This document shows positions 5,992-44,848 of a stretch of DNA of 44,848 bases, piece by piece. The number at the start of each line of letters is the position of its first letter. Position 1 is the first letter of the stretch. Below the pieces are notes generated by a model. That model saw only the letters and a list, made by a program, of their open reading frames with translations. It was not told where the DNA came from and searched no databases. The position numbers and the translations under genes were made by a program. The DNA lies in NCBI GenBank assembly GCA_019429045.1, contig JAHYJL010000004.1, positions 1 to 44,848 on the forward strand. Reading direction: 5' to 3'. This stretch comes from Bacteroidales bacterium (lineage in GTDB: Bacteria > Bacteroidota > Bacteroidia > Bacteroidales > JAGOPY01).

Positions 5992-6003
5992 TTAATCAAA
6001 TGT

Positions 6004-6038: not shown

Positions 6039-6050
6039 CAAAAACAATAA

Positions 6051-20970: not shown

Positions 20971-21083
20971 TTCCTGGTTCCGGGTTCCCTTTTTTTCAGC
21001 CCGGGCATTACCGGCGGCGCCATCTCCCGTTCGGATTGCAGGTCTTGCATTTTCTCATGATATTTGTTAATTTTACATTCTTG

Positions 21084-23525: not shown

Positions 23526-23539
23526 TCATTTCACCCGAT

Positions 23540-23578
23540 AAAAAAGCCCATTCCGCCAACCGGCGGACGGGCTTTTTT
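23540..23578. terminator. Intrinsic terminator, aaaaaagccc...gggctttttt
   Basis: Outer 10-bp stem plus inner ccgcc/ggcgg stem and T run, directly after the FG-GAP gene stop. Confidence 0.85.
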
Positions 23579-23597
23579 GCTGCTCCATGAAAATCAG

Positions 23598-23720
23598 ATG
23601 CTTCACAAAGAAACAGTTGATGGAAACACACTGGAGTTAATCGAAAAACTCCAGTCAGATATGATGCTTCAGAATTTTGTTCTTGTTGGAGGGACTGCAT
23701 TGTCAGTTCATCGTCGATGA
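23598..23720 (+). pseudogene. N-terminal fragment of an AbiEii-like nucleotidyltransferase
   Basis: Translation MLHKETVDGNTLELIEKLQSDMMLQNFVLVGGTALSVHRR*; LVGGTAL is the nucleotidyltransferase glycine motif; frame ends at a junction. Confidence 0.6.
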
Positions 23721-23833
23721 TGAGGTTACGGAGCAATTTCGTTGGGATATTACTGCTAAAGATAGACACTTTTTGTTTCTTGTTTCTTGTTTCTTGTTTC
23801 TGTAAATATTTAATGTCCACCTAATGTCGCGAG
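23710..23833 (-). pseudogene. Duplicated 5' end of a LytTR response-regulator gene plus its upstream repeat region
   Basis: Minus strand KVSIFSSNIPTKLLRNLIIDDELTMQSL vs intact VSIFNRNILTKMLRTIIIDDEDHIRESL at 28 kb; 23757-23833 matches 28087-28170 apart from one 7-bp unit. Confidence 0.75.
23774..23801. repeat. Heptamer tract (tgtttct)x4
   Basis: Direct reading; same unit (reverse complement) as 6051-6110. Confidence 0.95.
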
Positions 23834-23957
23834 GCGCGCAGCGCCGAACGAATGTCTATCAATGTCGCGAGCGCAGCGAGTTAATGACGCGAGCGCAGCG
23901 AGTTTCATCCTTCAATTCGGTGATTTGCATCGAAGTCTTTTACCTGAGCTTTGAAAA

Positions 23958-25166: not shown

Positions 25167-25183
25167 CTTCGATTATAATTTAA

Positions 25184-25199
25184 TATATTTGCAAATATA
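25184..25199 (-). promoter_or_regulatory. Perfect 16-bp palindrome tatatttgcaaatata containing a TAnnTTTG -7 box for the ATPase gene
   Basis: Minus-strand TATATTTG 26 bp upstream of the ATG at 25166. Confidence 0.6.
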
Positions 25200-25241
25200 C
25201 TGTATTCTTCAGTTATATCGAAACACTTTAACAATAATAAC

Positions 25242-27302: not shown

Positions 27303-27313
27303 CCGTGTCCATT

Positions 27314-28066
27314 TTATCCGCCGATGCGGTCAAACAACTCCAGCAAATCTTCCCGTTTTCTGGATGCCACCGGAATTTTAGCGCCCCCTTCCAGGATCAC
27401 ATAGCCCCCTTCGGCCTTCTCAAAGCGCTGTATGTATTCCAGGTTGATCAGGTAGGATTTATGCACCCTGAAAAATCCGGCATCATCCAGCATTTCGTGA
27501 TAATATTTAAGGGTTTCAGAAATGATCACTTTGTCGCCCGACAAAAGGTAAAACGTGGAGTACCGCCCGTCCGATCCAATGTACAGTATGTCTTTGAGTT
27601 TAACCAGGTGGATGTTGTCGAAGGTTTTCAGGATGATCTTTTTCTTTGCCTGTTCATCGGTTTGCAGGTTGTTCACCAGGGTATTCAGTTGTGTATTGAT
27701 TTCCTTTTGGGAGAGTTTGTCGGCCTTGTCAAAGGCGGCTTTCAGGTCGCCCGATTCAACCGGTTTGAGCAGATAGTCCAGCGCACTGAACTTAAAAGCC
27801 GTGATGGCATATTGATCGAAGGCGGTGATAAAAATAATCCTGAAATCAATGCTTTCGAGTTTTTCGAGCAGGTCGAAGCCGGTCCCGTCTTTCATTCTGA
27901 TATCGAGCAGCAGCAGGTCGGGCCGGTGGGTCCTGATGGCTTTCAGGCCGCTTTCTACCCCATCGGCCATGGCCACCACCTTCGCGTTGGGGCAATGGCT
28001 GCGGAGCATCTCAGCGAGCGATTCGCGGATGTGGTCCTCATCATCAATGATAATGGTGCGGAGCAT
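27314..28066 (-). CDS. LytTR-family response regulator
   Basis: MLRTIIIDDEDHIRESLAEML receiver; LLLLDIRMKDGTGFDLLE; FFRVHKSYLINLEYIQRFEKAEGGYVILEGGAKIPVASRKREDLLELF. Confidence 0.93.
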   Translation of the reverse strand: MLRTIIIDDEDHIRESLAEMLRSHCPNAKVVAMADGVESGLKAIRTHRPDLLLLDIRMKDGTGFDLLEKLESIDFRIIFITAFDQYAITAFKFSALDYLLKPVESGDLKAAFDKADKLSQKEINTQLNTLVNNLQTDEQAKKKIILKTFDNIHLVKLKDILYIGSDGRYSTFYLLSGDKVIISETLKYYHEMLDDAGFFRVHKSYLINLEYIQRFEKAEGGYVILEGGAKIPVASRKREDLLELFDRIGG

Positions 28067-28103
28067 TTTTGTTAAGATATTTCTGTTAAAGATAGACACT
28101 TTT

Positions 28104-28138
28104 TGTTTCTTGTTTCTTGTTTCTTGTTTCTTGTTTCT
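28104..28138. repeat. Heptamer tract (tgtttct)x5
   Basis: Direct reading; flanks match the 23.77 kb copy, which has 4 units. Confidence 0.95.
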
Positions 28139-28296
28139 GTAAATATTTAATGTCCACCTAATGTCGCGAGCGCAGCGAGCTAATGTCCACTTAATGTCTA
28201 CTTAAATCCCGAAGGGATGCTTGACAGTAGCCCGCCAATTCATTGGCCGGGAAAAAAGGCGGGTGGTGCAAAAACCCCGTGCCGAACGAATATCTT

Positions 28297-30552
28297 CTAA
28301 TCTCGCTTTATGACCTTTTTCGTCATCACTGTATTTGCCGTTTGTATCCTGATCATATAGATCCCCGCCGGCAGCCCGGATGCATTCCATTCCACCCTGT
28401 GCTTTCCCGCCGGGTATCGCTGGTTTGTAATCGTTCCTAGTCCGGCCCCCTGGAAATTACAGATTTCGATCCGGACCATGGTTTCCCTTTCCAGCTCGAA
28501 AACAACGGTGGTATTCATAGTGAAAGGATTCGGATAACTTTGAACCTTGAACTTTGAACTTTGAACTGCCCGCCCTGGCATTCCAACGCCAACCGATCCA
28601 AACTCATACGCCCCAATGTCCACGATCGTATCCCCGTCGCCATCGCCGTCCCAGAGTCGGTAATTGCCAAGCAGGTCCCACATGGGCAGGTTCAGGCCCG
28701 TTGTATCAGGCCTCCCTGCATCGATGCATGGCGAGCCGGCGGAGAGCTGGTAGGGATGCTCCCCTGTCCCTTCAAACATCGGATCCGTATCCATATTCCC
28801 CTGCTGCCAGTTTAACACAGCATTTTGGGAAAAGGAGAAAGCCGCTTCACCGTTCTGGATATTGCAGTGATCCACCGTCATCTCAACCGCCATCAACCTG
28901 ATCTCCTCCTGGGCATTTCCCCAGATGTTGCAATGGGTTAAATTCACGGGTTGCAGGTTGGTGGATGACTGGCCGGTGAAATATAACATTGATTCTCCAT
29001 TAATACATTGATTATCAGATATCGTCAAATGGGATGCAGTGATATTCGATCTTGATGAATTAATGGCACTGCCATGGTATTCAGAACTATTGCCGGCCAG
29101 GCACAGATTCATCAGGCCCAGGTTGGAATTCACTATCCTGATAGCCCCGCCATATCTTGCCTGGTTTCCGAAAAAGCTAATGTTTTGCAGCGTTCCGTGC
29201 GCATTGTTCGCATATATTCCGCCTCCGCTTCCACTTCCTGCAGAATTTCCAGCTATCACCGTTTCATTTGCCCGGCAGGTAAAGTCTCCGCTGAGATATA
29301 TTGCGCCACCATAGCTGGTCGTATTGTATAAAAAACTGACCCGGGATAAATCTAATGAATTCTTGCTGTTAAGATAGATAGTTCCGCCATATGAAGCCGT
29401 ATTACCCGAAAGTTCTGCATTTGTCATGTGGAGTTCCGCATTCTTTAACCAGGCAAAACCTCCATAGTACGCCCTGTTTCGGGTAATCAAGGCATCTTTG
29501 ATCCTGACGGTTGTTCCTATTGAATATATGGCTCCTCCCGAAATGGCAAAATTGGTATCCAGGTGAACCCCTTCCAGTTCAAGGTATCCCCCGGCAGGAC
29601 AATAAATAGCGCCCCCGCCGGTATTGCCTGCATTGCCTCCTGTCAGGGTCAGATGGCGGAAGTAATCAGCTACATTGTAATTCTTAATGAACAGCCGGGA
29701 TGTAAATTCCCCGTCAAGTATCGTTATCCCGGCCCCCTGGCCGATGATCTCCACCGTTGGTATCAATTCCACGGGGAATCTTTCCCCGGTAGTGGAGGGA
29801 GAATAGACCCCTTCCGCCAGCCGGATTGTATGCGGAGGGACTGTATCGAGGCTTGTCCGGAGGAGTGCGCTGGTGATGGTTCTAACAGGATCTTCGGGTG
29901 TCAAACCGCTGTTGTTGTCATTGCCCAGCGGGCTGACATAGATATCGATATCGCCTGCCTCCAGGCCGACATAGATCAGACCGGGTGTTGAAGATGACAC
30001 ATAAAGGTTATAGCCAGATCCTTCCCAATAGCCTAATGAATAGACCGGGCTGCAGATACCGGGCTGATCTCCGGTGGTTATGACCGGAGAGAAATAAATC
30101 GTCCCACTGCTTGTTTGCAGGTATTCCGGGTTTTCACTTATCCACCAGTAATAATTTGCACCCGGGGGATAAGTATGATTCATTTCCATTGACAGGTATT
30201 CCGAATAGGAGAATATCCCCGTATCGGCGCCGGTAAACGGGAAATTGTCTTCCACCGTCCAGCCCAGCGGCAGCCTGATGCCAAAGATCAGCCGGTAATC
30301 GGTGTTCATGGCATTGGCAATCTCATCCCAGCTATCTGGCAGTTGCAGCCCGATGTTTGAGACAATCCGGTCCGCTTCGGAAAGCTTTGCGTCACAGGCA
30401 ACGGTTATATCCACGGCAAAGGACGATTCAAGCTCCGCCTCCTCCGGCTGCTCAATCGATTCAAAATAAGGACCATAACAGGCTGACCAGGTCAGCACAA
30501 TCGCCCCGGTAGCCGCCCAGAGCATGTTTTTGAGTAAACCTGATGTTTTCAT
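28297..30552 (-). CDS. Secreted parallel beta-helix-like protein with T9SS sorting tail
   Basis: MKTSGLLKNMLWAATGAIVLTWSAC; GGAIYxxxG/N repeats typical of right-handed beta-helix; SYPNPFTMNTTVVFELE...GIYMIRIQTANTVMTKKVIKRD. Confidence 0.85.
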   Translation of the reverse strand: MKTSGLLKNMLWAATGAIVLTWSACYGPYFESIEQPEEAELESSFAVDITVACDAKLSEADRIVSNIGLQLPDSWDEIANAMNTDYRLIFGIRLPLGWTVEDNFPFTGADTGIFSYSEYLSMEMNHTYPPGANYYWWISENPEYLQTSSGTIYFSPVITTGDQPGICSPVYSLGYWEGSGYNLYVSSSTPGLIYVGLEAGDIDIYVSPLGNDNNSGLTPEDPVRTITSALLRTSLDTVPPHTIRLAEGVYSPSTTGERFPVELIPTVEIIGQGAGITILDGEFTSRLFIKNYNVADYFRHLTLTGGNAGNTGGGAIYCPAGGYLELEGVHLDTNFAISGGAIYSIGTTVRIKDALITRNRAYYGGFAWLKNAELHMTNAELSGNTASYGGTIYLNSKNSLDLSRVSFLYNTTSYGGAIYLSGDFTCRANETVIAGNSAGSGSGGGIYANNAHGTLQNISFFGNQARYGGAIRIVNSNLGLMNLCLAGNSSEYHGSAINSSRSNITASHLTISDNQCINGESMLYFTGQSSTNLQPVNLTHCNIWGNAQEEIRLMAVEMTVDHCNIQNGEAAFSFSQNAVLNWQQGNMDTDPMFEGTGEHPYQLSAGSPCIDAGRPDTTGLNLPMWDLLGNYRLWDGDGDGDTIVDIGAYEFGSVGVGMPGRAVQSSKFKVQSYPNPFTMNTTVVFELERETMVRIEICNFQGAGLGTITNQRYPAGKHRVEWNASGLPAGIYMIRIQTANTVMTKKVIKRD

Positions 30553-30784
30553 GTGGTTTGGTATTTTAATGTCAATTAATGTCAACTTAATGTCGCGAGC
30601 GAAGCGAGCGAATGACAACCTAAAGGTACACCCCCCGGCAGGCAGGAATGAACCAAATGCATAAACGCCGGATTTGGCGTAACGAACGTTGGGATTTAGG
30701 GGATGAACGCTGCTCAGCGGTTCCTGGTTCTTGGTTCTTGGTTCTTGAACTCGAAACTCGAAACTAAATTGGCATAATACCGCA

Positions 30785-30835
30785 TTGCAAATCGTTTAAA
30801 AAGAATTATATTTGCAAATTGTAATTTACAATTTG
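30785..30835 (+). promoter_or_regulatory. TTG-N19-TATATTTG promoter followed by 21-nt inverted repeat caaattgtaa-t-ttacaatttg
   Basis: TTG 30785-30787, TATATTTG 30807-30814, perfect 10-bp arms 30815-30835, upstream of the ATPase start at 30860. Confidence 0.7.
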
Positions 30836-30859
30836 TAATATCTAAATTGTTTAATAGTC

Positions 30860-31987
30860 ATGACATCCATTTCAAATCCTTTCATTACAACCGGATACCA
30901 GGGAAGTGAGTATTTCTGCGACCGCGAAGATGAAACAAATGCCCTCAGAAGCAACCTGGTCAACGGACAATCAACGATCCTGGTGGCCATTCGCCGGATA
31001 GGAAAAACCGGACTGATCCGGCATGTGCTGACCCGGCTTCCGAAAAATTATGCGGGAATCTATGTTGATATCCTTCCAACCGAAAACCTGAAGGAATTTT
31101 TAAATGCACTGGTTACGGCTGTTTTTTCTACCATTCCTGAAAAGTCGAAACCCGGCAAAAAAATCCTGGATTTCATCAAATCCCTCAGACCGGTTGTGGC
31201 TTTCGACCCTTTGACCGGTTTTCCGCAACTCACGGTGGATGTAAGGCCCGGCGAGTCCGAGCGGCATATCCAATCCATGCTCGAATTCCTTGAGGGTTAT
31301 CCGCAAAAAGTCGTTATCGCCATCGATGAATTTCAGCAAATCCTGAATTATCCCGAAAATAATACGGATGCATTCCTGAGAAGTATTGTCCAGTCACTCA
31401 ACAATATCCGGTTCATCTTTTCGGGCAGTCAGCAGCATTTAATGACGCAACTTTTTGCCGATCCTTCCCGGCCATTTTACCAAAGTGCCAGTTTCCTGAA
31501 AATTGATAAAATTAAGCCAATGGCATATGCTTCATTCATTCGGCATCACTTTGAAGAAGCAAGAAACACAATAGGTGAGGATACTATAAATGCTATGCTC
31601 GACTGGACCGACCATCACACATACTACGTTCAGTTGCTTTGCAACAGGGTGTATGCATCCGCCTCAAGAAAAATAGATAATGAGAACTGGAAAGAACAGG
31701 CTGCCCGATTGCTCCAGGAACAGGAGATCGTTTTTTTTAAATACAGGGATCTGTTAACCAAGCAGCAATGGAAACTGTTGAAAGCAATCGCACATGAAGG
31801 GATTGTTTATTATCCCACATCCAAAGACTTCATCGCAGGATATAACCTGGGCAGCCCCGCCACAGTGCTTCGGTCGCTGCAAGCCCTGACAGAAAAGGAA
31901 ATGATTTATTCAGATTACACAAAGGAGGGCCAGATTTTTTATAGCGTTTACGATGTGCTGTTCAGGCGCTGGATGCAGAGGAGGTGA
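30860..31987 (+). CDS. AAA ATPase with C-terminal winged-helix-like region
   Basis: FCDREDETNALRSNLVNGQSTILVAIRRIGKTGLIRHVL; VVIAIDEFQQIL; FSGSQQHLM; YNLGSPATVLRSLQALTEKEMIY. Confidence 0.88.
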   Translation: MTSISNPFITTGYQGSEYFCDREDETNALRSNLVNGQSTILVAIRRIGKTGLIRHVLTRLPKNYAGIYVDILPTENLKEFLNALVTAVFSTIPEKSKPGKKILDFIKSLRPVVAFDPLTGFPQLTVDVRPGESERHIQSMLEFLEGYPQKVVIAIDEFQQILNYPENNTDAFLRSIVQSLNNIRFIFSGSQQHLMTQLFADPSRPFYQSASFLKIDKIKPMAYASFIRHHFEEARNTIGEDTINAMLDWTDHHTYYVQLLCNRVYASASRKIDNENWKEQAARLLQEQEIVFFKYRDLLTKQQWKLLKAIAHEGIVYYPTSKDFIAGYNLGSPATVLRSLQALTEKEMIYSDYTKEGQIFYSVYDVLFRRWMQRR

Positions 31988-32103
31988 ATTTCAGGCAGCA
32001 ACCAGCAGCCTTCCCCTTCGGGATTAAAACCTTCTCCGAAACCATACCAGGCAATAAATATTTCACACCTCCGGCGTGGGCCAAATGACCAATTAATGTC
32101 CAC

Positions 32104-34023
32104 CTAATGTCCACACTTCACCAGCTTTCGCGTCGAAACTTTGCCTTCAGTCTCTGTTAAGATAATCAGGTAAATCCCGGCCGGCAGAGGGCCGGCGCTG
32201 CAGGAAATTTCATGGGTTCCAGCCGGCAGTTGTTTATTGAACAGCACAGCCAGCCTTTGTCCCATGGTATTAAAAACCTCCGCCACGGCCATACCCGGTG
32301 TATTCATGCAAAACTTCAGGGTTAACTGCTCGTTGAACGGATTGGGAAAGAAAGAAAAACCTTCTGCCTGAACAGCACTTTCAACACCCACTGTTTCACA
32401 GGCTGCCAATACCTCAGCAGGGCTGTTACACCCGGGAGCGTTACCATAAATACTAACCGTCCCGTTAGGTGCGGCCAGGTATTCGCAGATACTTTGCACC
32501 TCGCAGGTGGTTAATGATACATTATATTTTATATCAAGATGTGTAATAGAATTGGCATCAATGCTATCGAGCCCTTCCAGGCTGGTCAGCATGGCGTTGG
32601 AATTTATATTAAGTTCATCCCCGATACAAGTCAAACCTTCCAGTCCCGTAATGCCTATCAGGTTGGTGTTACCCACAATTTTAAGGTAATGACCGATGGA
32701 AGTCAGATTGTTCAGTCCTGTCAGGCTGGTCAGGGAATAATTATTATCGATACAAAGGAATCCCCCGATAGAAGTCAGATTTTCCAGCCCCGTCATGCTT
32801 GACATGGCAGCGTTTCGATTGATATGAAAATAGCCCCCTATGGAAGTCAGGCCTTCCAACCCAATCATACTGTTAAGAGCATGGTTGTATCGTATCAGGA
32901 GGTTTCCCCCAATGAAAGTCAGGTTGTTCAGTCCTGCCAGGTTGGCCAGGGAATTGTGAGATTGTATTTCAAGGTAATTTTCAATGGAGGTCAGATTATT
33001 CAGTCCCGTCAGGCTGGTCAGGGCACTATTATTTGATATATAGAGATAATCCCCGATATAAGTCAGATTGTTCAGTCCCGTCAAGCTGGTCAGGGCAGGG
33101 TTAGAAAGTATCTCAATGTACTCCTCCTGAGAAGTCAGATTATTCAGCCCCATCAGGCTGGTCAGGGCATAGTTCGATTTTATCGAGAGGTAACTTCCGA
33201 TGGAATCCAGATTATCCAGCCCCACAAGATTTATCAGGCCAATGTTCGATTCTATCGAGAGGTAACCCCCGATGGAAATCAGATTATCTAACCCCGAAAG
33301 GTTGGTCAGTGAAAGATTTCCGGAATTATAATCATTACCCCCAATTTGAAGGTTACCCCCAATAGCAGTCAAATTGTTTAAACCCGTCAGGCTGTTTAAG
33401 GCATTGTTGTGATCTAATAAAAGAAAACCCCCGATATAAGTCACATTATCCAGCCCCGCCAGGCTGGTAAGGGCATTGTTATTATCTATTCGAAGATAAT
33501 TCACGATCGAAGTCAAGCCTTCCAGCCCCGTCAGGTTGGTCAATGCATTGTTATAATGTATCCGAAGATAACCTCCGGCTGAGGTCAGATTATTGAGCCC
33601 TGTCAGGCTGATAAGGGAAGAGTTGCCTACTATCCGGATATCACTCCCGACAGAAGTCAGATTCTCCAGTCCTGTCAGGTTGATCAGAACCGGGTTACCT
33701 TGATTGTTGTATTCACCAATTAAAAGTGAACCCCCGATGGATGTCAAATTACCTAAACCAAACAGGTTGGTCAGTAAAGTACCACGATATATCCAAAGGT
33801 ATCCCCCGATGGATGTCAGGACGCTCAAACCATTGAGATTGCTTATGAAGGAACCCTTTATGGTGACATTCCCCTCAATTATTGTACACCCGGGATAGTT
33901 GGCCTGGAAATTATCAATCTGTGACTGGGTTGTAAAGGTGATTCCCTGGGGAAGGCATGACTGGCCGGTTGCTTTAGAACAGCTTATGATCATTATCGCA
34001 GCTAAAAAAACTATTTTTTTCAT
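32104..34023 (-). CDS. Secreted protein with about 16-18 leucine-rich 24-aa repeats and T9SS sorting tail
   Basis: Unit NLTSIGxYLxIxxNxALTSLTGLN; C-terminus SFFPNPFNEQLTLKF...GIYLIILTETEGKVSTRKLVKC. Confidence 0.9.
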   Translation of the reverse strand: MKKIVFLAAIMIISCSKATGQSCLPQGITFTTQSQIDNFQANYPGCTIIEGNVTIKGSFISNLNGLSVLTSIGGYLWIYRGTLLTNLFGLGNLTSIGGSLLIGEYNNQGNPVLINLTGLENLTSVGSDIRIVGNSSLISLTGLNNLTSAGGYLRIHYNNALTNLTGLEGLTSIVNYLRIDNNNALTSLAGLDNVTYIGGFLLLDHNNALNSLTGLNNLTAIGGNLQIGGNDYNSGNLSLTNLSGLDNLISIGGYLSIESNIGLINLVGLDNLDSIGSYLSIKSNYALTSLMGLNNLTSQEEYIEILSNPALTSLTGLNNLTYIGDYLYISNNSALTSLTGLNNLTSIENYLEIQSHNSLANLAGLNNLTFIGGNLLIRYNHALNSMIGLEGLTSIGGYFHINRNAAMSSMTGLENLTSIGGFLCIDNNYSLTSLTGLNNLTSIGHYLKIVGNTNLIGITGLEGLTCIGDELNINSNAMLTSLEGLDSIDANSITHLDIKYNVSLTTCEVQSICEYLAAPNGTVSIYGNAPGCNSPAEVLAACETVGVESAVQAEGFSFFPNPFNEQLTLKFCMNTPGMAVAEVFNTMGQRLAVLFNKQLPAGTHEISCSAGPLPAGIYLIILTETEGKVSTRKLVKCGH

Positions 34024-34166
34024 GTTGCTGCCCATTATTAGCAATAAAATTAATGCAAATTATAAATACCATTGATGAAAAAATAATAATCAATGATGAA
34101 GTTAGGCCATAAATAACGAGCGAACAGTTAAAGACAGACAAGCTAACAATATTATTACTAACAAAC

Positions 34167-34197
34167 TTGTTAGCAATTATTAAATTACGTATCTTTG
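34167..34197 (+). promoter_or_regulatory. TTG-N20-TATCTTTG promoter; TTG lies within the inverted repeat ctaacaa-ac-ttgttag
   Basis: TTG 34167-34169, TATCTTTG 34190-34197; arms 34158-34164 and 34167-34173; extra direct copy gctaacaa at 34142-34149. Confidence 0.65.
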
Positions 34198-34213
34198 TGA
34201 TAAATCATTGATT

Positions 34214-35344
34214 ATGGACACTCCATTTGTATATGGCAAGCTGGCCGTAGGAAAGAATTTCACCGACCGTGAAACTGAAAAGAACCAACTGATCCGAAAC
34301 TTTCTTTCAGGCACCAACACTATTTTAATTTCGCCAAGGAGATGGGGCAAATCATCCTTGGTGTTAAAGGCAGCATCAGAAATTAATTCAAAAGAAAATA
34401 ACCTGATGATCGTTTTTATCGATCTGTTCAATATTCGAAACGAGGAAGACTTTTATAAAGCTTTGGCGGAAAATGTGATACGGGCCTCTTCCAGCCGGTT
34501 AGAAGAAGTCGTTTCAAATGTGAAGCAATTCATGAAACAATGGGTCCCAAGGATCACTTTTTCACCGGATTCACAACAGGAATTCAGCCTGGGACTAAAC
34601 TGGAACGAGTTAAAAAAGCAACCGGACGAAATTCTTGATCTTGCAGAAAATATTGCCAGATCTAAAGAACAGAAAATGGTGATCTGCGTTGATGAATTTC
34701 AAAATATTGCATTTTTTGAAGACCCTTTGGCTGTTCAGAAGAAGTTAAGGTCACACTGGCAGACTCACCAATCTGTTTCTTATTGCCTGTATGGATCAAA
34801 AAGGCACATGTTAATGGAAGTTTTCACATCTTCATCCATGCCGTTTTACAAATTTGGTGATTTGTTGTTTTTATCAAAAATAGCGGTCAATTTCTGGATA
34901 CCATTCATTATGGAGCGCTTCAGATCGACAGGAAAGGCAATTTCAGCCAAACAAGCTGAGAAGATAGCCGTCCTTGTGGAAGGCCATCCTTATTATGTGC
35001 AGCAATTGGCTCAATTGGTGTGGCTAAGAACGAACAAAGCAGTTTCAGGTAATATAATTGATCAAGCTATGGAGGGGCTGGTACTGCAAATTAGCCTTTT
35101 GTTTCAGGGGATCACGGAAAGTCTGACAACATCACAGATAAGTTTTCTAAAAATGCTGGTTGATGGAGAAAAGCGTTACAGTACCGGTGAGAATATCCAT
35201 AAATATAACCTGGGCAGCTCCGCAAATGTGATCAGGATAAAAAAATCACTGATTGCTAAAGAAATCATTGACGAACAATCCAACGGTCTGATTATACTTG
35301 ACCCGGTCTATTCAAGCTGGCTCCGGAAATATTACTTCAAATGA
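34214..35344 (+). CDS. AAA ATPase, divergent paralogue of the 30860-31987 protein
   Basis: NFTDRETEKNQLIRNFLSGTNTILISPRRWGKSSLVLKAA; MVICVDEFQNIAFFED; YGSKRHMLMEVF; YNLGSSANVIRIKKSLIAKEII. Confidence 0.88.
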   Translation: MDTPFVYGKLAVGKNFTDRETEKNQLIRNFLSGTNTILISPRRWGKSSLVLKAASEINSKENNLMIVFIDLFNIRNEEDFYKALAENVIRASSSRLEEVVSNVKQFMKQWVPRITFSPDSQQEFSLGLNWNELKKQPDEILDLAENIARSKEQKMVICVDEFQNIAFFEDPLAVQKKLRSHWQTHQSVSYCLYGSKRHMLMEVFTSSSMPFYKFGDLLFLSKIAVNFWIPFIMERFRSTGKAISAKQAEKIAVLVEGHPYYVQQLAQLVWLRTNKAVSGNIIDQAMEGLVLQISLLFQGITESLTTSQISFLKMLVDGEKRYSTGENIHKYNLGSSANVIRIKKSLIAKEIIDEQSNGLIILDPVYSSWLRKYYFK

Positions 35345-35362
35345 CAATCAAGCCAAAACAAT

Positions 35363-37717
35363 ATGGTAAAAGGCAACTTTAGGGTACGAGATTCATTTCT
35401 TCTCAACGGCAGGAAAACCTTCCTCAACTCCGGCGAGATCCATTACTTCCGGATTCAACGCGAACTGTGGGACAAACACCTCACCGCCGCAAGAGAGGCA
35501 GGCCTGAGCACGGTCAGCACCTATGTGCCCTGGGCCTGGCACGAGGAGGCCGTGGGCGAATTTGATTTTTCCGGAAAAACCCATCCCCAGAAAGACCTGG
35601 AAGGCTGGCTCGACCGCTGCCAGGCACACGGGCTGTATTGCATCCTCAAGCCAGGGCCGTTCATCCTGGCCGAATGGCGCGGGGCCGGGCTCCCCGACTG
35701 GTTCGTAGAACAATACGGCAGCGAGGTGAAGATGCGAAACCGGAAAGGCGACATTGTCCCGGGCGACGGGGTCAGCCTGTTCCACCCGGTATTCCTCGAA
35801 AAAGTAACGCGCTGGTATGACCAGGTCATGCCGCTTATCGCCAGAAGAGAAATATCAGCCGGCGGCCCTGTTATCATGATGCAGATATGCAACGAGATCG
35901 GCGTATTCTCCTGGCTGGCGCATCAGGCGGACTATGGAGAGGAGGTGAAGAGGAGATTTGGCGATCTTCCACCGGATGGCAGGACACCTTATGCATCGAT
36001 GGAAGACCGCGGCAGGGACTACGAATGGCATCTTTTCTGGCGGTCTTATTACGGCGATTATCTGCGGATGCTGTCGAAAATGGCCCGTGACCGCGGTGTA
36101 ACCGTTCCCTTCTACCATAACCTGCCGGGATGGATTTACGGCCACGGGTACGAATTCCCGGTGAATATCACCATGTATGAAGATCTTTTCGGCGATAAAA
36201 GCGAGATCATGTTCGGGATCGACCATATCCCCGAATTCGTTTCTTACCGGAACATGCACGACGATCGCATCATCAATGATATCACGCAGGCCATGCAGGG
36301 GAACAAACCCCTTTTTGCCGCCGAGTTCCAGAGCGGTTCGCGGGAGTACCACGTGGTGACCAATCCACGCGAGACGGAGCTGTTTTACAAAGCCAGCATT
36401 GCTCACGGTCTTACCGGCTGGAATTACTATATGTTCTCACAGGGACGGAATCCCAGCCGCAGGGGATATTCCGGCGATACGTTCTACTGGTTTACGCCGC
36501 TACAGGCGGATGGGGAACGGTCAAGCCTTTTCCCCCTGGTACAAAGGATGAGCCGGATTGTCAAAACAACAGAAAGCATTATCCTGGAAGCTGAGCGGAA
36601 AGCCGGGATCTGCGTGCTTTTCTATCCGCCTTACTATGCCACCGAGCTGGAACGGCCCGAGGAAGGCGCTTCGGGGCTGACCTTCAACTATGCCGCCATC
36701 CGCCGCCCGGCATACTTCGACGGCCTGTTAAAAGCCTTACAGGTGTTAAATATCGACTATGACATGGCTGATCTGAACCAGGCCACTGCGGACAGCCTGG
36801 CCAGATACAGGCAGGTCTGGGCTTTTTGCACCGATGAGATGAATGCCCGGGAGCAGCAGGTACTGGTCGATTACACCGAGTCCGGAGGCAACCTGGTGAT
36901 TTTTCCCAACCTGCCCGACCGGGAGATGACAGGGACTCCATCCCATATCATCAGGGACTCCATCCCTGTCTCACCCGCCGGAACCGAAACCATCGACTCG
37001 CCGCTGATCGACATATTCGGCCTGAAAGACATCAAGTGCGCCAATCCGCAGGTCATTTATGATGAGAAAGCACCTGGAGATGCTGAAATTATTGCCCGGA
37101 CCATCAGAGGAAGCGCCTGCGGCTTCATCAAAACCATGGACAAGGGGACATTGATGCACCTCGGCACCTGGATCGGATTTGATACCGAAGGTCATAAACC
37201 GGTGTATGAAGCCATGCTGAAAAGATCAGGCGCCCGGCTGCGGCAGGCCTCCTCGTCAAATGACTTTATCACCGTCAGGGAAAGATTTACTGGCGATGGG
37301 AAAGGACTTCTCTTCATCGGTAATTATTATAATGAAGAACAAACCGGTAAGGTGGAATATACGCATCCGGTCAGCAGGGACTCCATCCCTATTCCATACG
37401 CAGGGGGCGAAATACTCTGGCCACCGTTATACGGCATGTTAACCCCCCTATTGCTTGAGATTGACGAAGGATTGAGCATCCTTCATAGCACTTCCGACAT
37501 CCTCGGAATTGAAAAGACCCGAGAAGGCATCAGGATCACCCTCTACGGCGACCGGGACCTCGCGGGGGAAATTGTGTTTGAAGGGGATGTTAGCAAAATC
37601 AGTTTTGTAAAAATCAATGGTGAAATAGCAAGACTGATTTCAGACAACAATCGGAAAGTTTTGTATTACAAGCACGTTCATAATAAAGAGATTAGCCTGG
37701 AATTAGGAAGAATGTAA
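35363..37717 (+). CDS. GH35-family enzyme, no signal peptide; candidate beta-1,2-glucooligosaccharide-active transglucosidase or hydrolase
   Basis: FLNSGEIHYFRIQRELWDKHLTAAREAGLSTVSTYVPWAWHE; GPFILAEWRGAGLPDWF; GGPVIMMQICNEIG; KPLFAAEFQSGSREY. Confidence 0.85.
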   Translation: MVKGNFRVRDSFLLNGRKTFLNSGEIHYFRIQRELWDKHLTAAREAGLSTVSTYVPWAWHEEAVGEFDFSGKTHPQKDLEGWLDRCQAHGLYCILKPGPFILAEWRGAGLPDWFVEQYGSEVKMRNRKGDIVPGDGVSLFHPVFLEKVTRWYDQVMPLIARREISAGGPVIMMQICNEIGVFSWLAHQADYGEEVKRRFGDLPPDGRTPYASMEDRGRDYEWHLFWRSYYGDYLRMLSKMARDRGVTVPFYHNLPGWIYGHGYEFPVNITMYEDLFGDKSEIMFGIDHIPEFVSYRNMHDDRIINDITQAMQGNKPLFAAEFQSGSREYHVVTNPRETELFYKASIAHGLTGWNYYMFSQGRNPSRRGYSGDTFYWFTPLQADGERSSLFPLVQRMSRIVKTTESIILEAERKAGICVLFYPPYYATELERPEEGASGLTFNYAAIRRPAYFDGLLKALQVLNIDYDMADLNQATADSLARYRQVWAFCTDEMNAREQQVLVDYTESGGNLVIFPNLPDREMTGTPSHIIRDSIPVSPAGTETIDSPLIDIFGLKDIKCANPQVIYDEKAPGDAEIIARTIRGSACGFIKTMDKGTLMHLGTWIGFDTEGHKPVYEAMLKRSGARLRQASSSNDFITVRERFTGDGKGLLFIGNYYNEEQTGKVEYTHPVSRDSIPIPYAGGEILWPPLYGMLTPLLLEIDEGLSILHSTSDILGIEKTREGIRITLYGDRDLAGEIVFEGDVSKISFVKINGEIARLISDNNRKVLYYKHVHNKEISLELGRM

Positions 37718-37738: not shown

Positions 37739-40700
37739 ATGAAAATCAATAATCAAAACGGCCTCTTCATCGAGTTCTTTGAAAATAGAGCCATCAGAAG
37801 CATCAATGCCGGTCCCATCCGCATCAGCCTGAAAGAGTCCTCCCCCTTTTCCCGGCCAGGGGCCAATATCTTCTTGAGAAAAAGAAACGAATCCCATAAC
37901 TACACCCCGATTATGGGCCCTGGCAGCAACAGCCGTTTTTCACATGGTGATGATTTCTTTTTGGCTGAGGGAAACTGGCAGGGACTGGAATACCGCTGCC
38001 TGCTGAAGCTGTCGGCGAAGAGCCTGAGCTGGCAATGGAGCATTGATGTGAAAAATTTAACAGACGCCGATGTTGATCCCGACCTGATCTGGGTGCAGGA
38101 CGTTGGGCTGAAGCCGGTGAATGCCGGATTGATCAATGAGTATTATGTGGCCCAGTACCTGGAGCGGCGCATCCTTGAGGATCAGCGCCATGGCCCGGTG
38201 ATCTGCTGCCGGCAGAACATGCGGGAATCCACCGGCCATCCCTGGCTGATGATGGCCAGCCGCAACGGTGCCGCATCAGCTTCGACCGACGGCATGCAGT
38301 TTTATGGCAAGCGTTACCGCGCGACAGGCATCCCGGAAGGGCTTCTGGCCGACCGGCTGGGAGGCGAATATGCGGGCGAATCATCGGTGGTGGCGCTGCA
38401 GGAGAAGCCTTTTACGCTCCAGCCCGGAGAAAGCCGGCACGTTGGTCTCTTTGCGTTATTCCTGCCGGATCATCCGGAGGCGACATCGGACACAGACCTT
38501 GATATGCTGGCCGGTGCTATGTCAGAATTCCTGACAGGGACTCCATCCCTTTTAACAACTGAAGCCCCATCTCCTTTAAATCCCATCAGCACCTCTCCCT
38601 TCCTCCCTGTTGATGACCTGACTGACGATGAACTGAAACGGTTTTTTGGCCATGAGTGGCGGCAGGTGGAAACAGAAAATGACCGTATCCTGTCATTTTT
38701 CAGCAGTGAAAGTAATCATGTCGTCCTCCGGCAAAAAGAAATCCTGGCCGACCGGCCGCACGGACATATTATGCAGGCCGGCTCAGGCCTGGTGCCCGAA
38801 GAAAGCATCATGTCGACAACCGCTTTCATGTCCGGGGTGTTCAACTCGCATGTGACCCAGGGCAATACCAATTTCAATACGCTGCTTTCGGTCTGCACCA
38901 GCCAGTTCAACCAGTCGCCCGAAACCGGGCAACGTATCATTTTGTCAATTGACAACCGGCAATTCCTGCTCGGCGTCCCTTCCGCCTTTGAAATGGGACT
39001 GAATCATTGCCGGTGGATCTATAAGTCTGGCAGCCATCTTTTCCAGGTCCGCACCTGGACATCGGTAAAATCGCCGCAGGTAAATATGGATTTCAAGGTT
39101 ATCAAAGGCAAACCGGTGAACCTGCTCATCACCCATCATTTTGATCCCCTCAACGGTTGGGAGATATTGCCCGGAAAGTCAACCTTAGAGAATATCGCTG
39201 TTCCGGGACCGGACAGTATGATTTCTTCCCAGTTTCCGGAGGCACGGTTCAGGATCATTGTTCAGGATCAAAAGGTAAAAGAGGGTGTCTCAAAAGTCAA
39301 AAAGTCTCTTTTTTTTATTAGTCCGACGACTGAATTCCAGGCATTAAACCGACGGGTTAACCCGTCGGTTTGTAACATACTCGGAACCAACGGCTTTAGT
39401 CGTTGGAGCACGACCCAATTCCAGGCTGCAGTCCGATTGCATAGACTTTTGGGACACCCTCTCTGTATCCGGGTGAACCAGGCGAAAGACTTCTGTCTCA
39501 GCATAATCGGCGAAGTGGTCAGCGCCGTTGAACCGCTCAGGTTTGAAAATGCCGATGAGCAATGGCATGCCGATTGCCGGGAGGCCCGCGCCGCCTGGCA
39601 GGAACTGAGCCTGAACCTTGCCCTGCACAGCAGCCAGGATGACATCGCCGCCATCCGGGAGATCCTGCCATGGTACGGGATGAATGCGCTGATCCACTAC
39701 CTGACGCCATACGGCCTGGAGCAATTCGGCGGCGCTGCCTGGGGCACGCGCGACGTGTCGCAGGGACCGGTAGAACTGCTGCTGACGCTTGGAAAATACA
39801 AGGAAGCCCGCAGGGTGCTCTGCATCATCTTCTCTAACCAGAACCCCGACGGCGGATGGCCGCAGTGGTGGATGTTCGACAGCTACAGGGAGATCCGGGC
39901 GCATGAAGCCCATGGCGATATCTTCTACTGGTGCATCATGGCCCTTGCCAGTTATATCAAGGTCACGGGCGATATGGACATTCTCAGCGAAACACTTCCC
40001 TATTATCATGGGGAAGGCCCGGCCCACGCTGAAAAAACCCGGCTCAGCGAGCATGTCGAAAGGCTCATTGACATGATCACCGCCTCATTCATCCCGGGAA
40101 CTGCCCTGGTGCCCTTCGGCGGCGGCGACTGGAACGACTCCCTGCAGCCGGTAAGCCAGGAACTGGCCCGGCGGATGATCTCCGGCTGGACGGTGGAGAT
40201 GAACTACCAGGCGTTCAGGGAATATCAGCAGGTGCACGAGATGGCCGGCAACACATCGAAAGCGGCGGAATTAGAGGAAATCTGCAGCAGGATCAAGGCC
40301 GATTTCAACAAACACCTCGTCAGGGATGGGGTGGTGGCGGGTTACGGACTACTTGAACCGGACAACAGCATCAGCGTGATGCTGCACCCGGCAGATACGA
40401 AAACCGGCATTCATTACAGCATCCTCCCGATGAACCGGGGCATTATCAGCGGAATCTTCAGCAAAGAGCAGGCTGAAAACCACCAGGCGCTGATCGAACA
40501 GCACCTGAAAGGCCCTGACGGCGCGCGCCTGATGGACCGCCCCATCAGGTACAAAGGAGGCATACAGGAAATCTTTCAGCGGGCCGAAAGCAGCACTTTC
40601 TTCGGGCGGGAGATTGGCCTGATGTACGTACACGAGCACATCCGCTACGCGGAAGCCCTGGCCATCACTGGCAAGGCGGAAGCATTCGTCAGGGCGCTGC

Positions 40701-41200
40701 GCCAGGCAATACCGGTAGACTACAGAAATATTGTCCCATGCGGCGACATCCGCCAGGCAAATTGCTATTACAGCAGCTCCGACGTTCACTTTATAAACCG
40801 CTATGAAGCCGATGAGAAATACGATGAGGTGATCCGCGGGAATATGCCCCTGAAGGGCGGATGGCGTGTCTATTCCAGCGGCCCGGGCATCTTCATCAGC
40901 CTGGTTGTAACAAGGCTGCTGGGCCTGCACATCGAAAACGGTTTCGTTATCCTCGACCCGGTAATGCCCCGGTCATTCGATGGATTATCAGCCACATTGG
41001 ATTTCATGGGCCATCCCACCCGGTTAGTTTACACCATCAGGAATGGCAACTTCAGCCCTAAGGCCGTCACAATCAACGGACAACCCATTCAATTCACTTA
41101 TGAAGAAAACGAATACCGCATGGGCGGGGCAATGATCGCTATCGAAACTTTCAAAAAAATGACAACCCAAAAGGAAAATATCGTTGAAATTCTGCTTTGA
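37739..41200 (+). CDS. GH94-family phosphorylase, candidate 1,2-beta-oligoglucan phosphorylase
   Basis: Long N-terminal beta-sandwich region; MNALIHYLTPYGLEQFGGAAWGTRDVSQGPVELLL; VPFGGGDWNDSLQPV; GWRVYSSGPGIFISLVVTRLLGL; no signal peptide. Confidence 0.82.
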   Translation: MKINNQNGLFIEFFENRAIRSINAGPIRISLKESSPFSRPGANIFLRKRNESHNYTPIMGPGSNSRFSHGDDFFLAEGNWQGLEYRCLLKLSAKSLSWQWSIDVKNLTDADVDPDLIWVQDVGLKPVNAGLINEYYVAQYLERRILEDQRHGPVICCRQNMRESTGHPWLMMASRNGAASASTDGMQFYGKRYRATGIPEGLLADRLGGEYAGESSVVALQEKPFTLQPGESRHVGLFALFLPDHPEATSDTDLDMLAGAMSEFLTGTPSLLTTEAPSPLNPISTSPFLPVDDLTDDELKRFFGHEWRQVETENDRILSFFSSESNHVVLRQKEILADRPHGHIMQAGSGLVPEESIMSTTAFMSGVFNSHVTQGNTNFNTLLSVCTSQFNQSPETGQRIILSIDNRQFLLGVPSAFEMGLNHCRWIYKSGSHLFQVRTWTSVKSPQVNMDFKVIKGKPVNLLITHHFDPLNGWEILPGKSTLENIAVPGPDSMISSQFPEARFRIIVQDQKVKEGVSKVKKSLFFISPTTEFQALNRRVNPSVCNILGTNGFSRWSTTQFQAAVRLHRLLGHPLCIRVNQAKDFCLSIIGEVVSAVEPLRFENADEQWHADCREARAAWQELSLNLALHSSQDDIAAIREILPWYGMNALIHYLTPYGLEQFGGAAWGTRDVSQGPVELLLTLGKYKEARRVLCIIFSNQNPDGGWPQWWMFDSYREIRAHEAHGDIFYWCIMALASYIKVTGDMDILSETLPYYHGEGPAHAEKTRLSEHVERLIDMITASFIPGTALVPFGGGDWNDSLQPVSQELARRMISGWTVEMNYQAFREYQQVHEMAGNTSKAAELEEICSRIKADFNKHLVRDGVVAGYGLLEPDNSISVMLHPADTKTGIHYSILPMNRGIISGIFSKEQAENHQALIEQHLKGPDGARLMDRPIRYKGGIQEIFQRAESSTFFGREIGLMYVHEHIRYAEALAITGKAEAFVRALRQAIPVDYRNIVPCGDIRQANCYYSSSDVHFINRYEADEKYDEVIRGNMPLKGGWRVYSSGPGIFISLVVTRLLGLHIENGFVILDPVMPRSFDGLSATLDFMGHPTRLVYTIRNGNFSPKAVTINGQPIQFTYEENEYRMGGAMIAIETFKKMTTQKENIVEILL
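39280..39462. mobile_element. MITE-like palindromic element, 183 bp, inside the GH94 ORF
   Basis: TIRs agagggtgtctcaaaagtc / gacttttgggacaccctct (18/19 match); internal 26-bp perfect palindrome 39346-39371 and hairpin 39387-39406; no transposase. Confidence 0.8.
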
Positions 41201-41258
41201 TCCTGTTCTGAATGATTTTAACAGGTTGGAAGACGATGAAAATGCCGCAAGGGTTGTT

Positions 41259-41525
41259 TCATGATATCGAGCTTCTGATGAGGTAAATCGTGTATGAAAT
41301 GAATATGACCAGCATAATGGAGGCCTCCCACCGGTCAAGGCGCTTTCTCTTCCCTGAAAACATTGCCAGGAAAAGAATGACTGTGCCCAGTCCCAGCAGG
41401 TATAAATCCTGGTTGAATTTTACATTGTATTTCCGGGCCAGGGCAGATCCTCCGTCGACCAGCCAGCCGGCACCTGCTATCAGTAAGGCAAAGCAAAGGA
41501 TTAACAGTAAGATTTCTACAAGCAT
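41259..41525 (-). pseudogene. Internally deleted Na+/Ca2+ exchanger (CaCA, YrbG-like) remnant
   Basis: N-terminal MLVEILLLILCFALLIAGAGWLVDGGSALARKYNV joined to C-terminal-like LYLLGLGTVILFLAMFSGKRKRLDRWEASIMLVIFISYTIYLI. Confidence 0.6.
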
Positions 41526-41545
41526 TGCTTCATCATAAATGTATT

Positions 41546-41871
41546 GCGAAATTAATCAGACTTAGCTTTGCTGCTTTCGCTCAGGAAAAATTTTCATTAA
41601 CGGTCTCCTTTCCAGATCCGGGTGTTATCAGTAAATTTGACCCTGGAAGAAAAGATCGGCCAGTTGAACCTGCTGCCTGGGTACGAAGATATCGTCACAG
41701 GTGAGGCGACCGCGTCGGAGATTGGGAGGAAAATCCAGGGCAGAAATACACTACGCCAGGGGAAGCAATATTGTGGATGACCCGGAAATGGACCGGCACC
41801 CAGGGTGGCAAAGCCATTGCGGACGTTATCTTCGGCGATGTAAATCCATCCGGCATTGCAGGGAGGTGAAA
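41546..41871 (+). pseudogene. Shattered GH3 beta-glucosidase remnant
   Basis: Fragments in different frames: LSFAAFAQEKF (signal peptide-like), LTLEEKIGQLNLLPGYEDIVTGEATASEIGRKIQ, YARGSNIVDDPE, WTGTQGGKAIADVIFGDVNPSG. Confidence 0.8.
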
Positions 41872-41982: not shown

Positions 41983-42036
41983 AACACTAAACACCAAACA
42001 CTAAACACTAAACACCAAACACTAAACACTAAACAA
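41983..42036. repeat. Heptamer tract aaacac[t/c], immediately 5' of polA
   Basis: aacactaaacaccaaacactaaacactaaacaccaaacactaaacactaaacaaaa then ATG at 42039. Confidence 0.93.
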
Positions 42037-42038
42037 AA

Positions 42039-44774
42039 ATGGCCAACCGCCTCTTCCTCCTCGACGCCATGGCCCTCATCTACCGGGCCTATTTCGCGCT
42101 GAATAAAAATCCCCGGATCACCTCTACCGGTCTGAATACATCGGCCATTCTGGGCTTTGCCAATACCCTTTACGATATCCTGAAAAACGAAAAACCCACC
42201 CACATCGGGATCGCTTTCGACTCCTTCGCCCCTACCCTGCGGGAGGCGGAATATGTTGAATACAAAGCCCAGCGGGAAAAGATGCCGGAAGATATAGCAC
42301 TGGCCCTCCCATACATCCGGCGGCTGATCGAAGGATTTAAAATACCGATCCTCGAGCTGGAAGGCTATGAGGCGGACGACATCATCGGCACCCTGGCCCG
42401 GAAAGCGGAAGAGAAAGGATTCACGACATATATGGTCACCCCGGATAAGGACTTCGGCCAGCTTGTCACCGGTAAAATATTGATCTACAAGCCGCCACGA
42501 TTCGGGAACAAGGCGGAGATCCTCGGTGTGAAGGAGATTTGTGAAAAATATAACATTGACCGCCCTGAACAACTCATCGACATCCTCGGGCTTTGGGGCG
42601 ATGCATCGGATAATATCCCCGGGATACCCGGTGTGGGAGAGAAATGGGCCAAAGACCTCATCAAAGAGTTCGGCAGCATCGAGAACCTGCTGCAAAACAC
42701 CGGTAAGCTCAAGGGAAAAATGAAGGAGAATGTGGAGGAATATGCCGAGCAGGGCCTCTTCTCCAAAAAACTCGCCACCATCATGATCGACGCCCCGCTG
42801 GAATTCGAAGAAGATAAGCTGGTCATTGAAAACCCAGACGGCACCGCGCTTAAAGAACTATTCGACGAACTGGAGTTCCGCACCTTTGCCAAAAGGATTT
42901 TTACAGATCTTTCGATAATGGAAAAGGTTGAATCTGAAGGACATGGCAAAAAAGGGTTTCCAACCCTGGGGTTGGAAACCCTGAATAAATACCACCTTGT
43001 CACAACTTCAGAACAACGCAATCAACTGATTGAGAGATTGCAAAAAGAACAAACTTTCTGCTTCGACACCGAAACCACAGGCATTGATCCGAACAACTCG
43101 GAACTGGTCGGCATATCCTTCTGCTTTCAGCCCGGCGAAGCCTTCTTCGTATACCTTCCGGAAAACTACCAGGAATGCCTGGAGATCGTCAGGGAGTTCA
43201 AGCCTTTCCTGGAAGATGAAAACATCCCCAAGACCGGCCAGAACCTGAAATACGACATCGCCATCCTGAAGTGGTACGAGGTGGAAGTCAAGGGGAAGCT
43301 GTTCGACACAATGCTGGCCCATTACCTGATTGAGCCCGATATGCGGCACAATATGGACTACCTGGCAGAAACCTATCTCAATTACAAAACTATCCACATC
43401 GCCGAGCTCATCGGCAAGAAAGGGAAAAACCAACTCAGCATGCGCTCTGTGACCCCGGAGCGATTGGCGGAATATGCCTGCGAGGATGCTGATATCACCC
43501 TGCAGTTGCAGATAGTCTTTGACCCGATGCTCGATGAGGGAGGATTGCGCAAGATATTTGAAGAGATCGAGATCCCGCTGGTGCCCGTGCTGGCATCGAT
43601 GGAGGCCGAAGGGGTCAAGCTCGACACGGCAGCCTTGCGGGAGTATTCGGTACAATTGGGGAAAGAGGTTATCGAAGTCGAAAAAGAGATCTACCAGCTG
43701 GCGGGCGAGGAGTTCAACATCGCCTCCACCAAGCAGTTGGGAGAGATACTCTACAAAAAGCTGCGGGTGACCGATAAACCGCCCCGCACCCCTACCAAGC
43801 TCTATTCCACCAGCGAGGAAGTGCTGGTCAAAATGCTTTACCGCCACCCGATCATCCAGCTCATCCTGGATTACCGCTCGCTGACCAAGCTGATATCGAC
43901 CTATGTCGACACGCTTCCGGAACTGGTCAGCCCGCGCGACAAGCGGATCCATACTTCTTACAACCAGGCGGTCGCCGCCACCGGCAGGCTCAGCTCCAAC
44001 AATCCCAACCTGCAGAATATCCCCATTCGCACCGAAAGGGGGCGTGAGATCAGGAAAGCCTTTGTCCCGCGCAGCAAAGATTATGTCCTTTTATCGGCCG
44101 ACTACTCCCAGATAGAGTTGCGGATCATCGCAGCCCTCAGCGAAGACGAAAACATGCTCGAAGCTTTCCGCAACCGGATCGACATCCACGCCGCCACCGC
44201 CAGCAGGGTATACGGGCTTTCCCTGGAAGAGATCACCGCTGAGATGCGCCGGAGGGCCAAAACCGTTAATTTCGGCATCATATACGGAATATCAGCGTTC
44301 GGACTGTCAGAACGCCTCAACATCCCCCGCCGTGAAGCCGCCGATATCATCGAGGCCTATTTCGCGCAATACCCCGGCATCAAGGCTTACATGGATAAAA
44401 CCATCGTCTTTGCCCGCGAGAACGGTTATGTAGAGACCATCCTCGGTCGCCGCCGTTACCTGCGCGATATCACCTCCGCCAACGCCACCGTCCGTGGCTT
44501 CGCCGAGCGCAACGCCATCAACGCCCCCATCCAGGGTTCTTCGGCCGACATGATCAAAATCGCCATGATCCGGATCTACGACGCATTCACCGGCAAAGGC
44601 CTGCGCAGCAAAATGATCCTCCAGGTGCACGACGAACTCGTCTTTGATGTGTACAAACCAGAGATCGAAACGGTAAAGCCCATTATCCACGACCTGATGG
44701 TGAATGCCATCCCGCTGAAGGTTCCTGTCGAAGTGGAAATGAATACGGGGGAGAACTGGCTGCAAGCGCATTAG
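42039..44774 (+). CDS. polA: DNA polymerase I
   Basis: LFLLDAMALIYRAYFAL; 5' nuclease GYEADDIIGTLARKAEEKGF; 3'-5' exo FCFDTETTGIDP; polymerase LLSADYSQIELRIIAALS, RRRAKTVNFGIIYGIS, QVHDELVFDV. Confidence 0.97.
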   Translation: MANRLFLLDAMALIYRAYFALNKNPRITSTGLNTSAILGFANTLYDILKNEKPTHIGIAFDSFAPTLREAEYVEYKAQREKMPEDIALALPYIRRLIEGFKIPILELEGYEADDIIGTLARKAEEKGFTTYMVTPDKDFGQLVTGKILIYKPPRFGNKAEILGVKEICEKYNIDRPEQLIDILGLWGDASDNIPGIPGVGEKWAKDLIKEFGSIENLLQNTGKLKGKMKENVEEYAEQGLFSKKLATIMIDAPLEFEEDKLVIENPDGTALKELFDELEFRTFAKRIFTDLSIMEKVESEGHGKKGFPTLGLETLNKYHLVTTSEQRNQLIERLQKEQTFCFDTETTGIDPNNSELVGISFCFQPGEAFFVYLPENYQECLEIVREFKPFLEDENIPKTGQNLKYDIAILKWYEVEVKGKLFDTMLAHYLIEPDMRHNMDYLAETYLNYKTIHIAELIGKKGKNQLSMRSVTPERLAEYACEDADITLQLQIVFDPMLDEGGLRKIFEEIEIPLVPVLASMEAEGVKLDTAALREYSVQLGKEVIEVEKEIYQLAGEEFNIASTKQLGEILYKKLRVTDKPPRTPTKLYSTSEEVLVKMLYRHPIIQLILDYRSLTKLISTYVDTLPELVSPRDKRIHTSYNQAVAATGRLSSNNPNLQNIPIRTERGREIRKAFVPRSKDYVLLSADYSQIELRIIAALSEDENMLEAFRNRIDIHAATASRVYGLSLEEITAEMRRRAKTVNFGIIYGISAFGLSERLNIPRREAADIIEAYFAQYPGIKAYMDKTIVFARENGYVETILGRRRYLRDITSANATVRGFAERNAINAPIQGSSADMIKIAMIRIYDAFTGKGLRSKMILQVHDELVFDVYKPEIETVKPIIHDLMVNAIPLKVPVEVEMNTGENWLQAH
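42953..42982. repeat. REP-like palindrome inside polA, agggtttccaaccc-tg-gggttggaaaccct
   Basis: 14-bp perfect stem, 2-nt loop; same arms as 14359-14390. Confidence 0.93.
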
Positions 44775-44848
44775 GGGCATGGGGGCATGGGGGCATGGAG
44801 GCATGGAGGCATGGAGGCATGGGGGCATGGGGGCATGGAGGCATGGGG
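44775..44848. repeat. Octamer-like tract ggcatgg[g/a]g downstream of polA, running off the window
   Basis: ggggcatgggggcatgggggcatggaggcatgg... Confidence 0.9.

What the first reader, a model, noticed from the sequence alone, without database searches (positions are those of the whole stretch)
41546..41871. Decayed GH3 beta-glucosidase next to the GH94 gene
Four GH3-like pieces survive in order but in different frames: a signal peptide-like end (FAAFAQE), LTLEEKIGQLNLLPGYEDIVTGEATASEIGRKI, YARGSNIVDDPE and TGTQGGKAIADVIFGDVNPSG. These match N-terminal, middle and C-terminal landmarks of BglX-type GH3 enzymes, with most of the gene deleted. An exported GH3 is the enzyme expected to finish beta-1,2-glucan hydrolysis. 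Its loss beside an intact GH35/GH94 pair suggests a shift from periplasmic hydrolysis to cytoplasmic phosphorolysis or transglucosylation.
Basis: partly seen in the sequence, partly recalled or inferred. Interest (0 to 1): 0.72.

Follow-up and report, generated by a model that had tools for sequence, protein, structure and literature searches.

The report
Fossil GH3 beta-glucosidase beside phosphorylase gene
Next to the phosphorylase gene of a beta-1,2-glucan utilisation cluster in this Bacteroidota genome lie three small leftovers (about a tenth) of a once complete exported beta-glucosidase gene; this is an ordinary dead gene, useful mainly because intact copies in relatives show what was lost and that this enzyme often comes and goes in such clusters.

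Summary
Observation confirmed. Three of the four pieces are real, collinear GH3 remnants in three frames (41637-41738, 41737-41796, 41795-41854). Against the intact GH3 of a related genome they reach E = 9e-12, 8e-3 and 5e-4; none of 1,000 dinucleotide shuffles reaches even the weakest piece. The fourth, "FAAFAQE", is not supported. A same-order genome (G049/L143) carries the intact gene at the same place: SOGP, SGNH hydrolase, lipoprotein-type GH3. About 90% of the gene is gone, including both catalytic residues. No intact GH3 with the C-terminal domain was found in the 94%-complete genome.

GH3 is optional in this cluster: of 63 relatives with at least 3 kb of downstream flank, 19 have it downstream on the same strand, 4 inverted, 6 upstream, 34 not within range. 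So the loss need not mean a metabolic switch, although the cytosolic SOGP/GH35 pair could in principle spare GH3. The GH94 (SOGP) gene is not simply "intact": a 183-bp IS1182-related MITE adds 61 in-frame codons in place of roughly 20 host codons. A Na/Ca-exchanger relic and a ~14-kb operon split show wider erosion. Ordinary pseudogene; low interest.

The parts
41637..41738 (+). GH3 relic piece 1 (start of the N-terminal domain), frame 2; alignment extends weakly upstream to 41616
   Evidence: tblastn to G049 GH3 residues 45-85, 66% identity, E 9e-12; shares LL-GYEDI and TASEIG only with the syntenic G049/L143 GH3 among 24
41737..41796 (+). GH3 relic piece 2 (within the C-terminal domain), frame 3
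   Evidence: tblastn to G049 GH3 residues 461-480, 70% identity, E 0.008; to G001 GH3 59% over 32 aa, E 5e-5
41795..41854 (+). GH3 relic piece 3 (GTQGGKAIADVIFGDVNPSG, late C-terminal domain), frame 1
   Evidence: up to 85% identity to intact GH3s; PF01915 E 6e-7, E 1.7e-5 in whole-genome search
41567..41587 (+). FAAFAQE, claimed signal-peptide end; unproven
   Evidence: sequence only; no tblastn hit
37739..41200 (+). [quoted passage not shown]
   Evidence: Pfam SOGP_N, SOGP_2nd, Glyco_hydro_94, SOGP_4th; closest solved structure 5h3z E 9e-171
39280..39462 (+). 183-bp MITE (61 codons) in frame inside the SOGP gene, 19-bp terminal inverted repeats
   Evidence: repeat family with 105 BLAST matches in own genome; TIR hits 24 in G000, 12 in G001, 0 in three other relatives; fold z-score -8.05; absent from 37 SOGP homologues
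35363..37717 (+). GH35, close to the Ignavibacterium album beta-1,2-glucosyltransferase
   Evidence: 7vkw E 2.6e-145; both catalytic Glu motifs (NEIG and AEFQ) conserved
41257..41528 (-). second relic: internally deleted Na/Ca exchanger, 88-aa open frame
   Evidence: translation; PF01699 E 1.3e-6, two stretches
42039..44774 (+). polA, right-hand border of the locus
   Evidence: homologues in G001, G049 and G026; in G001 it borders SusC/SusD/GH144/PhoH, as in the window

Best explanation
The stretch 41637-41854 is a dead gene: three remnants of an exported BglX-type GH3 beta-glucosidase that stood directly downstream of the SOGP gene. Shown: homology, order, frame changes between pieces, loss of about 90% of the gene including both catalytic residues, and an intact gene at the same position in a related genome. 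Inferred: the gene was lost by successive deletions after selection on it relaxed. GH3 is an optional member of this cluster, and the cytosolic phosphorylase (which acts on chains of three or more glucoses) together with the GH35 glucosyltransferase (which accepts sophorose as donor) can in principle consume imported beta-1,2-glucooligosaccharides without it. Whether the cell really works that way is not shown.
For: Three collinear pieces at 66-75% identity, E 9e-12 / 0.008 / 5e-4; no shuffle of 1,000 reaches the weakest; intact syntenic GH3 in G049/L143 with Glyco_hydro_3, Glyco_hydro_3_C and Fn3-like domains; the relic shares LL-GYEDI only with that gene; missing stretches correspond to G049 residues 86-460, 481-581 and 602-774, which include the VVTDY nucleophile motif and the SGESASR motif; no other GH3_C match in own genome; GH3 not within range of SOGP in 34 of 63 relatives; GH35 has both catalytic Glu motifs; the IaSGT authors suggest sophorose feeds the GH35 enzyme where no beta-glucosidase is in the cluster (PMC8861115).
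Against: The genome is a fragmented MAG (239 contigs, 94% complete), so an intact GH3 on a missing contig is not excluded. Reads could not be mapped. The IaSGT paper finds sophorose a good donor but sophorooligosaccharides poor acceptors, so the SOGP/GH35 relay is not proven; the same paper is inconsistent on whether the Ignavibacterium cluster holds a GH3 homologue.
Confidence: 0.8

Rival explanations
1. The whole beta-1,2-glucan cluster is decaying in this lineage, and the GH3 relic is merely the most advanced victim: the operon is split, SOGP carries a MITE, and a neighbouring exchanger gene is also eroded.
For: MITE in SOGP replacing about 20 host codons; about 14.4 kb of unrelated genes between transporter and GH35, which are adjacent in most relatives; exchanger relic; GH144 fragments between SOGP and GH3 in L093 and L097 show erosion downstream of SOGP elsewhere.
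Against: SOGP, GH35 and the transporter stay open over full length; the window SOGP has no excess of changes at otherwise invariant columns (2, within the range of relatives); GH144 genes, SusC/D and transporter have full-length open frames.
Confidence: 0.25
2. One reading: a selected shift from periplasmic hydrolysis to cytosolic phosphorolysis and transglucosylation, with GH3 loss as its consequence or cause.
For: SOGP and GH35 start without signal peptides; no other intact two-domain GH3 in own genome; GH35 closest to the beta-1,2-glucosyltransferase.
Against: SOGP and GH35 are equally present in relatives that keep GH3, so the phosphorolytic route predates the loss and does not replace it; GH3 is optional across the group.
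Confidence: 0.2
3. Assembly artefact: an intact GH3 collapsed in the MAG assembly.
For: MAG contig, reads not available.
Against: Two junctions with frame changes and ordered pieces within one 220-bp stretch do not look like a single misjoin; no piece of an intact copy elsewhere in the assembly.
Confidence: 0.03

Closest known systems
BglX-type GH3 beta-glucosidases of beta-1,2-glucan clusters (periplasmic beta-glucosidase PDB 5xxl, from memory the Bacteroides thetaiotaomicron enzyme; Listeria innocua Lin1840, PDB 4zo6)
   Same: The intact syntenic homologue in G049 matches 5xxl (E = 0) and Lin1840 (E about 1e-178) over nearly the whole length; Lin1840 is likewise adjacent to SOGP (PMC4757417).
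   Different: In the window only about 75 of some 750 residues remain, in three frames, with no catalytic residue.
SOGP, GH94 (Lachnoclostridium phytofermentans, PDB 5h3z)
   Same: Full-length homologue with all domains and the GGDWND motif.
   Different: 61-codon MITE insert near the end of the second supersandwich domain; predicted as a low-confidence loop (513-572, pLDDT below 50).
Rickettsia palindromic elements in protein-coding genes
   Same: Small palindromic mobile repeat read in frame within a conserved enzyme gene (PMC10969869).
   Different: Here a repeat family with IS1182-like ends in Bacteroidota; only one clear internal in-frame case was found among the copies inspected.

Membership tests
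GH3 beta-glucosidase (functional gene) | Glyco_hydro_3 and Glyco_hydro_3_C domains in one open frame | tested here: not met
   three pieces in three frames, about 10% of length
GH3 beta-glucosidase (functional gene) | catalytic nucleophile Asp and acid/base Glu present | tested here: not met
   both motifs fall in the missing stretches
GH3 pseudogene | significant collinear homology to intact GH3 | tested here: met
GH3 pseudogene | intact orthologue at the syntenic position in a relative | tested here: met
   L040 / L143
exported GH3 | signal peptide | tested here: inconclusive
   lipobox-like start in the intact G049 gene; FAAFAQE in the relic not significant
GH35 beta-1,2-glucosyltransferase (SGT) | closest to IaSGT, catalytic Glu pair conserved, no signal peptide | tested here: met
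GH35 beta-1,2-glucosyltransferase (SGT) | transferase activity on sophorose | not testable with these tools
   needs an enzyme assay
MITE related to IS1182 | terminal inverted repeats shared with an IS1182-type element, no transposase of its own | tested here: met
   GAGG(G/C)TGTC(T/C)CAAAAGTC ends next to decayed DDE_Tnp_1_6 genes on C45 and C172
MITE related to IS1182 | target-site duplication | tested here: inconclusive
   no clear duplication at the ends of the copies listed

The most novel reading that the evidence does not exclude
The cluster runs without any beta-glucosidase: SOGP shortens imported chains to sophorose, and the GH35 glucosyltransferase recycles sophorose by moving its glucose onto an acceptor, so GH3 became dispensable and decayed; in the same cell a selfish MITE has become 61 codons of a working SOGP.
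Probability: 0.15. Interest if true: 0.45.

Novelty: new member of a known kind. Interest (0 to 1): 0.25.

Why it matters
It gives a synteny-anchored example of GH3 loss from a beta-1,2-glucan cluster and makes a simple question testable: does a GH35 glucosyltransferase plus SOGP make the beta-glucosidase unnecessary? The in-frame MITE in the neighbouring phosphorylase matters more for genome biology than the fossil itself.

Tried and rejected
FAAFAQE as a fourth relic piece: no homology support. SGNH hydrolase debris between SOGP and relic: no tblastn hit. Further GH3 pieces 3' of NPSG: none found (the weak long frame-3 extensions with L093, L097 and L115 cross stops and were not counted). 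GH3 fossils in the relatives lacking the gene: none at E 1e-3 within 10 kb downstream, so the window's fossil is the only visible one. dN/dS of SOGP, GH35, transporter and polA against G001: synonymous sites nearly saturated, so only overall purifying selection can be stated. Rfam: no hits in the window.

Full report
What was claimed.

Check. The peptides are there. Against the intact GH3 of genome G049, tblastn finds three pieces in the right order: residues 45-85 (66% identity, E 9e-12), 461-480 (70%, E 0.008) and 582-601 (75%, E 5e-4), in frames 2, 3 and 1. Twenty-four intact GH3 proteins from related loci give the same picture. None of 1,000 dinucleotide shuffles yields a hit above 29.6 bits, while the weakest real piece has 32.0. 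The GH3_C Pfam model finds the third piece, and nothing else, in the whole own genome. The claimed signal-peptide piece FAAFAQE has no support beyond its look.

What was lost. Aligned to G049, the stretches 86-460, 481-581 and 602-774 are gone. They hold the VVTDY nucleophile motif and the SGESASR motif of the acid/base, so the remnant cannot be an active GH3 (motif assignment from general knowledge of GH3).

Synteny. In G049 (same contig as L143) the order is transporter, GH35, SOGP, SGNH hydrolase, GH3, sugar porter. The relic shares LL-GYEDI and TASEIG only with this GH3 among 24, which makes it the likely orthologue. The sister genome G001 keeps a GH3 (69% identical to the G049 one) on another contig (L036), away from SOGP. 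In G001 polA borders SusC, SusD, GH144 and PhoH (L165), the same neighbourhood that frames the window (PhoH 4651-5991, SusC 6248, polA 42039), so the chromosomal site is shared; the SOGP part of the G001 cluster lies elsewhere.

How common is GH3 here. A scan of 84,980 species genomes with a SOGP alignment returned 80 loci. Of 63 with at least 3 kb downstream, GH3 lies downstream on the same strand in 19, inverted in 4, upstream only in 6, and nowhere in range in 34. GH3 is therefore an optional companion of the GH144-CBM-transporter-GH35-SOGP core. No fossil was seen in the loci without GH3. GH144 fragments between SOGP and GH3 in L093 and L097 show that genes downstream of SOGP erode elsewhere too.

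The neighbouring GH94 is not simply intact. Its frame is open (1153 codons), with SOGP domains and the GGDWND motif, and no excess of changes at invariant columns. But residues about 515-575 come from a 183-bp palindromic repeat (39280-39462) with 19-bp inverted ends. It belongs to a family with 105 BLAST matches in this genome, 24 end matches in G000 and 12 in G001 but none in G002, G049 or G026. The ends resemble those next to decayed IS1182-type transposase genes on C45 and C172, so it is best read as a MITE. None of 37 homologues has it, and about 20 host residues are missing at the site. AlphaFold predicts 513-572 as a low-confidence loop in an otherwise sound model (mean pLDDT 78.5, pTM 0.82). 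That fits a tolerated insert but does not prove activity. Rickettsia palindromic elements are the known precedent (PMC10969869).

How it most likely came about. Shown: the remnants of a GH3 gene, cut to about a tenth by at least two internal deletions plus loss of the 3' part. Inferred: selection on it had relaxed. The remaining enzymes could carry the pathway: SOGP acts on chains of three or more glucoses (PMC5309861, abstract), and the GH35 is close to IaSGT, which uses sophorose as donor; the IaSGT authors suggest that sophorose feeds it where no beta-glucosidase is in the cluster. But that pair also exists in relatives that keep GH3, so the loss is not evidence of a switch.

Verdict. Observation confirmed, interpretation partly supported, ordinary pseudogene. 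The MITE inside the phosphorylase gene is the more unusual feature of the locus.

Noticed in passing
39280-39462: 183-bp IS1182-related MITE read in frame as 61 codons inside the SOGP gene, in place of about 20 host codons; a large repeat family in G000, present in G001.
   Followed up: yes
41257-41528 (minus strand): Internally deleted Na/Ca exchanger relic, 88-aa open frame, between the SOGP gene and the GH3 relic; the genome holds one intact exchanger elsewhere (C127).
   Followed up: partly
21036-35362: About 14.4 kb of unrelated genes (secreted T9SS proteins, AAA ATPases, a regulator) separate the sugar transporter from GH35, which are adjacent in most relatives.
   Followed up: partly
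41983-42035 and other arrays (5999-6114, 23773-23801, 28103-28138): Heptanucleotide tandem arrays upstream of or between genes; the array before polA has similar copies on several other contigs.
   Followed up: no
L093:13454-13970, L097:5437-6311: GH144 fragments between SOGP and SGNH-GH3, apparently further gene relics at the same place in other species.
   Followed up: no
L037:4774-6993: GH144 gene of G001 whose N-terminal region reads TTFTTFTTLTTLTTLTTF, a tandem DNA repeat that seems to have entered the signal-peptide region.
   Followed up: no
44774-44848: Octamer array GGGGCATG runs to the end of the window right after polA.
   Followed up: no
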